Source: an uncultured Lachnospiraceae bacterium | GTDB taxonomy: Bacteria > Bacillota > Clostridia > Lachnospirales > Lachnospiraceae | Assembly: GCA_905235585.1 (NCBI GenBank) | Contig: CAJOME010000005.1 | Span: 1-33,934, forward strand | Reading direction: 5' to 3' | Length of the DNA stretch: 33,934 bases | Shown here: in pieces, positions 131 to 4,177 of the stretch | Numbering within the stretch: position 1 is the first letter of the stretch | Layout: each line of letters opens with the position of its first letter | Program-made: the position numbers and the translations under genes | The notes under the pieces: model-generated | What the model saw: only the letters and a program-made list of their open reading frames with translations | Databases searched by the model: none | What the model was told of the DNA's origin: nothing

Positions 131-202
131 GGCCCGGTGGTCAAGAGGTTAAGACATCGCCCTTTCACGGCGGTAACACGGGTTCAATTCCCGTCCGGGT
201 CA
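131..202 (+). tRNA. tRNA-Glu (TTC)
   Basis: Acceptor stem 131-137 pairs with 195-201. The anticodon loop 162-168 carries TTC at 164-166, the T-arm is GGTTCAATTCC-like, and the discriminator is A202; CCA is not encoded. Bases 178-203, covering the T-arm and 3' acceptor strand, recur exactly at 1511-1536. This is the classical signature of a tyrosine-recombinase element that integrated into the 3' end of a tRNA gene and restored it. Confidence 0.95.
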
Positions 203-203
203 C
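178..203 (+). repeat. att-like direct repeat, copy 1 (3' end of tRNA-Glu)
   Basis: This 26-bp stretch is identical to 1511-1536, and the flanking bases 177/1510 and 204/1537 differ. It spans the T-arm, acceptor strand and discriminator of tRNA-Glu. I read it as the element boundary that lies inside the intact tRNA gene. The identity is seen; the att role is inferred. Confidence 0.8.
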
Positions 204-1378: not shown

Positions 1379-1411
1379 AAAAAGGAGGATGTTGACAAAA
1401 AAACATCCTCC
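1379..1411 (-). terminator. Minus-strand rho-independent terminator (orphan)
   Basis: GGAGGATGTT (1384-1393) and AACATCCTCC (1402-1411) form a perfect 10-bp stem with an 8-base loop. Read on the minus strand, the stem is followed by TTTTT (1383-1379), the terminator orientation. No minus-strand gene remains upstream of it, so it may be left from a deleted element gene. Confidence 0.6.
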
Positions 1412-1442
1412 GCATATAATAACTGACGCATGACACGAAAAT

Positions 1443-1510: not shown

Positions 1511-1536
1511 ACGGGTTCAATTCCCGTCCGGGTCAC
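1511..1536 (+). repeat. att-like direct repeat, copy 2
   Basis: An exact 26-bp copy of tRNA-Glu bases 178-203, present without the rest of a tRNA gene. It marks the far boundary of the presumed integrated element; 1537 onward would be the original downstream chromosome. The distance from copy start to copy start is 1333 bp. Confidence 0.8.
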
Positions 1537-1554: not shown

Positions 1555-1733
1555 TTCAGGTTTTCTCGATCGAGTGCTTAGTGGTATAATAGGATTGCTC
1601 GCAGAATGGCGATTAGATAGAATTCGCAGTGCATGCGATCTGGAAATAGGTAAAACTCGCAGAATGGCGATTAGACAGAATTCGCAGTGCATGCGATCTC
1701 GAAAACCTTTCAGGTTTTCTCGATCGAGTGCTT
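1555..1733. repeat. Nested direct repeats between the element and tRNA-Cys
   Basis: Two repeat families interleave. A 44-bp unit occurs at 1598-1641 and 1656-1699 with one mismatch (T1618/C1676), a 58-base period. A 25-bp unit occurs exactly at 1555-1579 and 1709-1733 and contains the palindrome CTCGATCGAG. GAAAACCT (1701-1708) and AGGTTTTC (1712-1719) also form a hairpin. With only two copies per unit and no cas genes this is not CRISPR. I do not recognise the family. Confidence 0.8.
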
Positions 1734-1756
1734 CGCACTATAATTTCTTCGCGATA

Positions 1757-1786
1757 AGCACATATGCCCGCAAGCGGTCATGTGCT
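1757..1786. repeat. Imperfect palindrome upstream of tRNA-Cys
   Basis: AGCACAT (1757-1763) pairs with ATGTGCT (1780-1786) and an inner CCGC/GCGG stem extends it, with two mismatches between. No T-run follows, so it is not a standard terminator. It may be a REP-like unit or part of the neighbouring repeat cluster. Confidence 0.5.
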
Positions 1787-1813
1787 TTCCGCTCGAAATT
1801 GCACTGCTCATGT

Positions 1814-1884
1814 GGCGACATAGCCAAGCGGTAAGGCAAGGGTCTGCAACACCCGTATCACCAGTTCGATTCTGGTTGTCGCCT
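1814..1884 (+). tRNA. tRNA-Cys (GCA)
   Basis: Acceptor stem 1814-1820 pairs perfectly with 1877-1883. The anticodon loop 1844-1850 has GCA at 1846-1848, and the discriminator is T1884, which is characteristic of tRNA-Cys. CCA is not encoded. The outermost anticodon-stem pair (A1839-G1855) is mismatched, which is tolerable. Confidence 0.95.
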
Positions 1885-1887
1885 CTG

Positions 1888-2052: not shown

Positions 2053-3108
2053 ATGTCTCAGAAAAAGATAAGTGTCATAATACCCTGCTACAACGTGAGC
2101 ATGTTTGTCGACAGATGCATGGAGTCTCTTGAAAAGCAGACCATAGGGATGGACAGTCTCGAGATCATACTGATCAATGACTGCTCCAAGGATGCCACAC
2201 TCGGCAAGCTGCTGCTGTGGGAGATGAAGTATCCCGAAAGTATAGTGGTGATACCGCTCGAAGAGAATATAATGCAGGGCGCTGCGAGAAACATAGCAAG
2301 AGAGTACTGCACCGCTGAGTATATAGCTTATCTGGACGCTGATGACTGGATCCTGCCCAATGCCTTCGAGAAGATATACAGGGTCGCCAGACAGAACAAT
2401 GCCGACATCGTAAACTATCTTTCAAAGAAAACCTATGTGGAGCCCGAAGAGGATGATCCCACTACCAAAAGCGGGAAGCCAGACAGATTTGTGGAGGTAA
2501 ATACTGCGCAGGAGAGGCTTGATTTCTTCATGGGAGACTGCCCGTTGCTAAGAGGCTGCTGGGACAAGCTTTTCCGCAGGGATTTCGTGGAGGAGCATGA
2601 TCTGAGATTTGCCGAGGGTGTATTTGATGAAGAGAGTCTGTTTACCACCCCGGCATATATGCACTTTAAGAGGATATATCTTTTGAATGAATACCTGCAC
2701 AGGTATTATCAGAATCCCATCAGCTCCACCTACAATCTGATGAGAGATATGAAGAGAAGGGACGATAATGCCAGGACCTGGCTCGCCACCTACAAGGTGA
2801 TGAAGGCAGACGGATCACTTGATGAGAACCATGAGCTGGCGGAGTGGTTCTTTATCATAAACTATTTCATCCGGTCTATTGTGTTTGCGACAGGTCGCGG
2901 CATACCGTATGACCTTGCCGCCGTACAGGAGATGCAGAGGAACGTTCTGGATTTCTTCCCGAACTTCAAGCAGAATAAATCGCTGGCTGCGAGAGAGCTC
3001 TACAGGGAGCCCCTAAAGCTTATAGATATCCCCATAGATGAATCAAACTTTGCGGAGTACAATGCCGCATGGGAAGAGATAGTAAAGACATATCCGAATG
3101 GGATTTGA
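2053..3108 (+). CDS. Family 2 glycosyltransferase
   Basis: A 351-residue protein with an N-terminal GT-A fold. ISVIIPCYN at residues 6-14 is the nucleotide-sugar binding start, LINDCSKD (40-47) follows, and AYLDADDW (92-99) carries the metal-binding DxD. These place it in GT2, which transfers a sugar from an NDP-sugar onto a cell-surface polymer or lipid. The C-terminal half has the block RGCWDKLFRRDF and FDEESLF, shared with the next gene. No membrane segment is visible, so it probably works on the cytoplasmic face. AGGAG lies about 8 bases before the ATG. The acceptor sugar cannot be told from sequence. Confidence 0.88.
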   Translation: MSQKKISVIIPCYNVSMFVDRCMESLEKQTIGMDSLEIILINDCSKDATLGKLLLWEMKYPESIVVIPLEENIMQGAARNIAREYCTAEYIAYLDADDWILPNAFEKIYRVARQNNADIVNYLSKKTYVEPEEDDPTTKSGKPDRFVEVNTAQERLDFFMGDCPLLRGCWDKLFRRDFVEEHDLRFAEGVFDEESLFTTPAYMHFKRIYLLNEYLHRYYQNPISSTYNLMRDMKRRDDNARTWLATYKVMKADGSLDENHELAEWFFIINYFIRSIVFATGRGIPYDLAAVQEMQRNVLDFFPNFKQNKSLAARELYREPLKLIDIPIDESNFAEYNAAWEEIVKTYPNGI

Positions 3109-3109
3109 T

Positions 3110-4177
3110 ATGAAAAAGATCAGCATCATCATCCCCGTATACAATACCGAGAAGTATATAAACCGGTGTGTGATGTCGCTCGTGCGTCAGAGCATAGGAG
3201 CCGACGCGCTGGAGATAATGCTCATTAACGATGCCTCCACAGACGAATCTCTTAAGTATCTTTATGCTTGGGAAAAGGAATTTCCGGAAAGCATCTGTGT
3301 GATAGATCTTGAAGAAAACGTAAAACAGGGCAAGGCAAGAAACATCGCCCTGCAGTATACGACGGGGGAGTACATTGCCTATCTTGACTCAGACGACTGG
3401 CTTGTGCCGGATGCTCTGCGTATGCTGTATGATAAAGCGCAGGAGACCGGTGCGGAGATCGTGGCATATCTTTCAAAGGATGTGAGTATAGAAGAGCAGA
3501 AGAAAAAAGGCGATGCCATAATCCTTGAGAACGATACGGACAGCGGCATGGAGGATGAGTATCTCAGAATAAGGGATACGGTCGACTATATCAGGCTTTT
3601 CTTTGGAGGCATGTCACAGAGAGGCTGCTGGGACAAGCTTTACAGGCGCGATTTTGTATTGAAGCATGATCTTAAATATACCGAGGGCATCTTTGATGAA
3701 GAAAGTCTTTTCACTATCCCCGCGCTCATGCATGTGAAAAAATATTATCTGATGAACAGATACCTGCACAGGTATTCCGATAATCCCATGGGTACAGTCA
3801 GCAACCTCTCTCAGAAATACGAGCATCTGCATGATAATGAAGTCACATGGAGGCAGGTATATGATGTGCTGAAAAAGGACGGATTCCTTAAAAAAGAACC
3901 GGAGCTGACAGAAGCGCTCTTCGTTCACAACTACTTCAACCGTTCACTGATGAATGCCGATGCCGCAGGACTCCTGTATGACGCGGAGGGAATACGGGCA
4001 CTTCAGGACACCATACACAGGCTCTATCCGAAATACAGGTATAATCCCATCCTCATAAATATGAGGAGCTTCCCCTATATGGAAAAGCTCCTCGAAATGA
4101 ATGTGGATGAAGAAAGTGTAGATGCCTTTTACTCCATCCTCAGGGATTGGGAAAGCATAGTAGGAAACGAGGTCTGA
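3110..4177 (+). CDS. Family 2 glycosyltransferase, tandem paralogue
   Basis: A 355-residue GT2 protein closely resembling its upstream neighbour: IIIPVYNTEKY at residues 6-16, LINDASTD, and DSDDW at 93-97, then the shared RGCWDKLYRRDF and FDEESLF blocks. I chose the ATG at 3110, one base after the previous stop, because the protein then aligns from its first residues with its paralogue; an in-frame ATG at 3098 would add only four residues and lacks a ribosome binding site. The arrangement suggests tandem duplication followed by divergence and translational coupling. The two enzymes probably add successive or alternative sugars to one surface glycan. Confidence 0.87.
   Translation: MKKISIIIPVYNTEKYINRCVMSLVRQSIGADALEIMLINDASTDESLKYLYAWEKEFPESICVIDLEENVKQGKARNIALQYTTGEYIAYLDSDDWLVPDALRMLYDKAQETGAEIVAYLSKDVSIEEQKKKGDAIILENDTDSGMEDEYLRIRDTVDYIRLFFGGMSQRGCWDKLYRRDFVLKHDLKYTEGIFDEESLFTIPALMHVKKYYLMNRYLHRYSDNPMGTVSNLSQKYEHLHDNEVTWRQVYDVLKKDGFLKKEPELTEALFVHNYFNRSLMNADAAGLLYDAEGIRALQDTIHRLYPKYRYNPILINMRSFPYMEKLLEMNVDEESVDAFYSILRDWESIVGNEV

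What the first reader, a model, noticed from the sequence alone, without database searches (positions are those of the whole stretch)
1555..1733. Interleaved 44-bp and 25-bp direct repeats between the element and tRNA-Cys
The order is B-A-A'-B, with A copies 58 bases apart and nearly identical, and B copies exact and containing the palindrome CTCGATCGAG. Non-coding, near-identical duplication beside tRNA genes suggests a recent duplication, a recombination hotspot, or a small structured element. It fits no type I can name.
Basis: seen in the sequence. Interest (0 to 1): 0.5.

Follow-up and report, generated by a model that had tools for sequence, protein, structure and literature searches.

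The report
Partial copies of tRNA-leader hairpin repeat
The repeats next to the cysteine tRNA gene are broken, recently duplicated pieces of a small hairpin-rich DNA element that several related gut bacteria carry just before that gene and that is distantly related to a known but unexplained RNA-like repeat family, so the duplication is ordinary and the element behind it is mildly interesting.

Summary
Two A copies (1598-1646 and 1656-1704, 47/49 identical, 58 bp apart) lie inside two B copies (first 25 nt exact). This is far beyond chance.

A' and B' are the 5' half of a complete ~133-nt structured element at 1681-1813, touching tRNA-Cys. It has four helices: P1, P2, P3 and P4 with a GCAAGC loop. 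Nine Lachnospiraceae genomes of the genus, window included, carry it directly upstream of tRNA-Cys. Compensatory changes occur in 25 of 45 pairs, and in 44 of 45 in a wider set. At least 19 of 30 tRNA-Cys loci in the genus lack it.

The upstream B and A are incomplete extra copies. The closest relative, G017, has only one A and one B, so both duplications are recent in the window lineage. Extra 5'-end stubs also lie upstream of the element in six other genomes. Distant members form head-to-tail arrays elsewhere.

The nearest named family is Rfam Clostridiales-1 (RF01699), a multicopy dispersed motif. It matches the antisense strand below its cut-off: homology is supported, membership is not.

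Best reading: a non-autonomous, hairpin-rich intergenic repeat lodged in a pre-tRNA leader, duplicated by illegitimate events. Mobility and transcription were not shown.

The parts
1681..1813 (+). Complete structured element in the tRNA-Cys leader (written on the tRNA strand; the likelier RNA strand is the opposite one)
   Evidence: Alignment of 9 genomes with 25/45 covarying pairs; model match 132.4 bits
1684..1690 (+). P1 5' strand GCAGTGC, pairs with 1801-1807 GCACTGC
   Evidence: P1 paired in all 9, with AU/UA and GC/AU exchanges
1801..1807 (+). P1 3' strand GCACTGC
1695..1725 (+). P2 hairpin (GATC...GATC with AAAACC/GGTTTT)
1727..1739 (+). P3 hairpin AGTGC/GCACT
1742..1800 (+). P4 long hairpin, conserved GCAAGC loop at 1770-1775 (GCTTGC on the other strand, as in Clostridiales-1)
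1685..1806 (-). Sub-threshold match to Rfam RF01699 Clostridiales-1
   Evidence: 29.9 bits, gathering 48, E 6e-5 for 291 nt and 8e-4 for 4 kb
1656..1704 (+). A', the 5' boxes (two P1-like 5' strands) and P2 5' arm of the complete element
1709..1744 (+). B', P2 3' arm and P3 of the complete element
1598..1646 (+). A, incomplete upstream copy of the element's 5' end
   Evidence: single in G017
1588..1645 (+). First 58-bp unit of the tandem duplication (second unit 1646-1703)
   Evidence: Sequence read directly
1555..1590 (+). B, displaced copy of the P2 3' arm and P3 5' arm (25 nt exact)
   Evidence: absent in G017
1814..1885 (+). tRNA-Cys (GCA) directly downstream
   Evidence: ARAGORN
1511..1536 (+). 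26-bp repeat of the tRNA-Glu 3' end (right end of the inserted island), bordering the repeat region but not part of it

Best explanation
The B-A-A'-B repeats are one complete copy plus incomplete copies of a ~133-nt, hairpin-rich, non-coding element in the leader of tRNA-Cys. SHOWN: A' and B' are the 5' half of a complete four-helix element at 1681-1813, whose structure is kept by compensatory changes at the same place in eight other genomes of the genus. SHOWN: the upstream A and B duplicate pieces of it and are absent from the orthologous spacer of the closest relative found. SHOWN: the same kind of 5' stubs lie upstream of the element in six other genomes, and distant members elsewhere form head-to-tail arrays. 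INFERRED: the element belongs to a superfamily of non-autonomous intergenic repeats that includes Rfam Clostridiales-1, transcribed if at all as RNA from the strand opposite the tRNA. INFERRED: an old copy came to lie in the pre-tRNA-Cys leader, where RNase P would cut it off, so it was tolerated and inherited. INFERRED: its hairpins promote slipped or template-switched replication, producing tandem copies, many of which later lost their interiors; in the window lineage this gave the 58-bp tandem A repeat and the displaced B fragment.
For: Position and conservation: the seven best relative matches all lie upstream of tRNA-Cys. Structure: 25/45 covarying pairs in 9 sequences and 44/45 in 30, far above shuffled and slid controls. 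Recency: G017 has a single A and B. Recurrence: more than one 5' box in seven of nine loci counting the window, with interior-deleted stubs keeping both P1 strands in G041, G024 and G023. Superfamily: reciprocal matches with RF01699, always antisense. Arrays and dispersed copies. Not universal: at least 19 of 30 tRNA-Cys loci lack it and one keeps only the 3' end.
Against: No clean empty site with a target duplication and no transposase was found; the nine tRNA-Cys elements form a tight group found only there (117-149 bits against at most 75 elsewhere), so recent mobility of this subfamily is not seen. Long structure conservation could mean function. The superfamily link to RF01699 rests on sub-threshold scores. 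Alignments made with the model lean towards its structure, though A1 was aligned without it.
Confidence: 0.7

Rival explanations
1. The element is a cis-acting leader of pre-tRNA-Cys that controls its transcription, processing or decay, and the extra stubs are variations of a functional leader.
For: It always touches tRNA-Cys, in two genomic contexts (after tRNA-Glu and after a stand-alone promoter), and its structure is kept by compensatory changes.
Against: At least 19 of 30 tRNA-Cys loci of the same genus lack it; related elements sit in unrelated places; the wobble-pair bias and the Clostridiales-1 match favour the opposite strand.
Confidence: 0.12
2. The element is a small-RNA gene on the minus strand, a diverged Clostridiales-1-like RNA that happens to end next to tRNA-Cys, possibly antisense to the pre-tRNA leader.
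For: RF01699 match on the minus strand; 86 minus-strand against 54 plus-strand wobble cells, same direction as in Clostridiales-1; the minus strand folds better than shuffles (z -3.8 against -2.3 for plus).
Against: No minus-strand promoter was found next to the element; the wobble counts are not corrected for relatedness; Clostridiales-1 itself looks like a dispersed repeat.
Confidence: 0.12
3. The repeats belong to the island inserted at tRNA-Glu (attachment or regulatory repeats of that element).
For: The island ends at 1536, only 19 bp before B.
Against: The repeats lie outside the 26-bp att repeat, and five relatives without an island between tRNA-Glu and tRNA-Cys have the same element.
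Confidence: 0.03

Closest known systems
Rfam RF01699 Clostridiales-1 RNA (Weinberg et al. 2010, PMC2864571: 'probably' an RNA, probably not cis-regulatory)
   Same: Closing stem, long hairpin with GCUUGC loop, middle stem, and a terminal hairpin with a purine-rich internal loop, in the same order; found in the same genomes; multicopy and dispersed
   Different: Here on the strand opposite the tRNA; 29.9 bits against a cut-off of 48; the ~50-nt middle domain is reduced to a five-pair hairpin; positioned at tRNA-Cys; end stubs accumulate
Small non-autonomous bacterial repeats such as ERIC/RU-1 and other MITE-like sequences (PMC2229807, PMC2759123)
   Same: About 100-170 bp, intergenic, palindromic and foldable, dispersed, no coding capacity
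   Different: Four-helix architecture, reiterated 5' ends, Lachnospirales distribution; no partner transposase known and no target duplication established here
IS200/IS605-type ssDNA-hairpin elements and REPs
   Same: Hairpin-rich DNA with directional ends; tandem arrangements
   Different: Longer four-helix structure; no Y1 transposase found in the held genome

Membership tests
RF01699 Clostridiales-1 | Covariance-model score at or above the gathering threshold (48 bits) | tested here: not met
   29.9 bits on the minus strand
RF01699 Clostridiales-1 | Closing stem plus long hairpin with GCUUGC loop and terminal hairpin in that order | tested here: met
   cmscan alignment over model positions 1-166; reverse matches of R1 to Clostridiales-1 loci, 7 of 7 antisense, four with E <= 0.012
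RF01699 Clostridiales-1 | Middle domain of about 50 nt | tested here: not met
   42 model positions skipped, replaced by a short hairpin
MITE-like non-autonomous repeat | Multiple dispersed copies without coding capacity | tested here: met
   For the wider family: 34 of 61 genomes, up to 22 matches per genome; two clear copies in the own genome. The tRNA-Cys subfamily itself has one copy per genome, or two in G035 if the copy at a contig edge counts
MITE-like non-autonomous repeat | Terminal inverted repeats | tested here: met
   P1 GCAGTGC/GCACTGC or GCAGAATGG/CCATTCTGC near the ends
MITE-like non-autonomous repeat | Target-site duplication at an occupied site with an empty ortholog | tested here: inconclusive
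   T(A/T)ACT-like sequence on both sides in some loci, single TACT in element-free G020, but G025 may be a remnant and the window lost its right tail
MITE-like non-autonomous repeat | Mobilised by a transposase | not tested
   Only the Y1 family was searched
IS200/IS605-derived element | Y1 transposase available in the genome | tested here: not met
   No PF01797 match in the held genome, 89% complete
Functional tRNA leader | Effect on tRNA-Cys expression | not testable with these tools
   Needs RNA data and mutants

The most novel reading that the evidence does not exclude
An ancient hairpin repeat has been domesticated as a structured leader of tRNA-Cys. It is kept by selection and repeatedly rebuilt by tandem copies, and it tunes cysteine-tRNA supply in cis or through an antisense RNA.
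Probability: 0.1. Interest if true: 0.7.

Novelty: new variant of a known kind. Interest (0 to 1): 0.36.

Why it matters
It turns an odd local repeat into a recognisable class: a structured, tandem-prone intergenic repeat superfamily of Lachnospiraceae and relatives, of which Rfam 15 names only Clostridiales-1 (no family plausibly matched the 16 diverged loci scanned, apart from neighbouring tRNA and rRNA). Clostridiales-1, filed as a small RNA of unknown role, is itself multicopy and dispersed, which bears on whether it is a mobile repeat rather than an ordinary RNA gene. The tRNA-Cys copies give a testable case of a repeat kept in a pre-tRNA leader.

Tried and rejected
BLAST-type search of the genome and a pattern search with 3 mismatches found no other near copies. 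Rfam matches other than RF01699 near the locus (rimP leader, Spd-sr07, plastid and microRNA families) were sub-threshold and implausible. A purely DNA-level hairpin reading was considered because wobble cells are rare (1.9% plus strand, 3.0% minus strand, against 5.9% in the tRNA control), but Clostridiales-1 is also low (3.8%) and the tRNA control is biased, since ARAGORN reports only pairs it accepts, so it was left open. IS200/IS605 origin: no Y1 transposase. The idea that the B fragment created a rescue promoter for tRNA-Cys after the island insertion was not adopted: TGGTATAATAG at 1582-1592 is about as frequent as chance in 34 kb when one mismatch is allowed, and a perfect TTGACA-17-TATAAT lies at 1392-1420. 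A tyrosine-recombinase reading of a minus-strand fragment of the island (GLRRREICALTYEDI) got no Pfam match. Literature searches found only the 2010 description of Clostridiales-1 and no account of tRNA-Cys leader repeats.

Full report
OBSERVATION. The repeats are real and at the stated place. A: 1598-1646 and 1656-1704, 47/49 identical, 58 nt apart. B: 1555-1590 and 1709-1744, 36 nt at 89%, with the first 25 nt identical. 300 shuffles never gave a 49-nt self-match above 29 (observed 47). The A pair is a 58-bp tandem duplication, both units starting AATAGG. The palindrome CTCGATCGAG is not conserved in relatives.

WHAT THE REPEATS ARE PART OF. A search with the whole stretch gave no second copy in the genome (1.97 Mb, 89% complete). 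It did match relatives of the same genus, where the seven best relative matches lie directly upstream of tRNA-Cys. Collecting the tRNA-Cys loci and reading their upstream DNA showed a ~135-nt block in nine genomes, whose closing stem ends 6-11 nt before the tRNA. The alignment folds into a closing stem P1 and three hairpins, P2, P3 and P4. 25 of 45 pairs have changes on both sides that keep pairing. The controls are clear: covariation score 0.437 against 0.172 shuffled and at most 0.107 slid. In the window the complete element is 1681-1813. A' supplies the P1 and P2 5' strands; B' supplies the P2 3' arm and P3.

WHY THE ORDER IS B-A-A'-B. The upstream A is a 5'-end stub and the upstream B is a fragment of P2-P3. 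Both are incomplete extra copies in the same orientation as the complete element. The nearest relative found, G017, has one A and one B between tRNA-Glu and tRNA-Cys, so the extra pieces are most simply recent in the window lineage (loss in G017 is the alternative). Stubs are not unique to the window: seven of nine loci, counting the window, have more than one 5' box. In G041, G024 and G023 the stub keeps both P1 strands with the interior gone, as a collapsed tandem copy would. Which duplication mechanism acted was not tested; slipped or template-switched replication at hairpins is an inference.

RELATION TO OTHER ELEMENTS. Rfam's only match in the repeat region is RF01699 Clostridiales-1, on the minus strand, at 29.9 bits against a threshold of 48. 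The converse search with a model of the tRNA-Cys elements (R1) found seven matches at Clostridiales-1 loci, every one antisense to it. The four strongest have E <= 0.012 and the other three are weak (E 0.85 to 4.4). The shared order of helices and the GCUUGC loop make common descent likely, but the score and the missing middle domain mean it should not be filed as a member. R1 also found diverged elements elsewhere (at most 75 bits), some near tRNAs and most not. None of the 16 diverged loci scanned was named by Rfam 15. A wider model (R2) matched 34 of 61 genomes, up to 22 times per genome; head-to-tail arrays are seen in G081, G010, G060, G050 and G041. In the window's genome it adds C118:364-512, between the 23S rRNA end and tRNA-Asn. 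Clostridiales-1 itself is multicopy here (six above threshold) and in relatives.

STRAND AND LEVEL. Wobble-type cells are few on both strands. Over 69 distinct sequences the minus strand has 86 G-U cells and the plus strand 54 (binomial p = 0.009, not corrected for relatedness). Clostridiales-1 shows 60 against 30 in favour of its annotated strand, which is the same strand. This weakly favours an RNA from the strand opposite the tRNA; it is not proof of transcription.

CONTEXT. In G035 and G041 the element lies between a TATAAT-type promoter and tRNA-Cys, and G025 has the same locus without it. In the window, an island flanked by a 26-bp repeat of the tRNA-Glu end and carrying HicAB has been inserted between tRNA-Glu and the element. 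It brought a terminator-like hairpin at 210-235 and a perfect promoter-like site at 1392-1420. The island does not explain the element, which five relatives carry directly after tRNA-Glu.

VERDICT. Observation confirmed. The duplication is a lineage-specific rearrangement within a conserved structured element, a new variant related to Clostridiales-1. The likeliest role is that of a tolerated non-autonomous repeat. A regulatory leader or antisense RNA is possible but not favoured, since at least 19 of 30 tRNA-Cys loci lack it: nine are complete, one is probable at a contig edge and one is a remnant.

Noticed in passing
window 178-203 and 1511-1536, island 204-1510: A 26-bp exact repeat of the tRNA-Glu 3' end brackets a ~1.3-kb island with a HicA/HicB toxin-antitoxin pair (606-776 and 809-1231) and no intact integrase: a remnant of an element integrated at tRNA-Glu.
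   Followed up: partly
window 1392-1420: A perfect TTGACA-17-TATAAT match on the + strand inside the island, pointing at tRNA-Cys; it may now drive tRNA-Cys, which the island cut off from the upstream tRNA genes.
   Followed up: no
L050-L055 and the genomes: Rfam Clostridiales-1, listed as a small RNA, is a multicopy dispersed element: six copies above threshold in this genome and at least 25 in some relatives, with many equal-scoring copies in G014, which looks like a mobile repeat.
   Followed up: partly
L141 (G081:C1:1798400-1799600), also L144-L147 and L156: Head-to-tail arrays of distant family members, with nearly identical units of about 100-140 nt.
   Followed up: partly
L071, L072 and L079, just upstream of tRNA-Cys: Different hairpin repeats (GCGACACATCTGCGAAGCAGATGTGCCGC and similar) occupy the same tRNA-Asn to tRNA-Cys spacer in other genomes of the genus.
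   Followed up: no
window 2053-3108 and 3098-4177: Two adjacent, similar ORFs resembling family 2 glycosyltransferases (by eye), apparently a tandem gene duplication.
   Followed up: no
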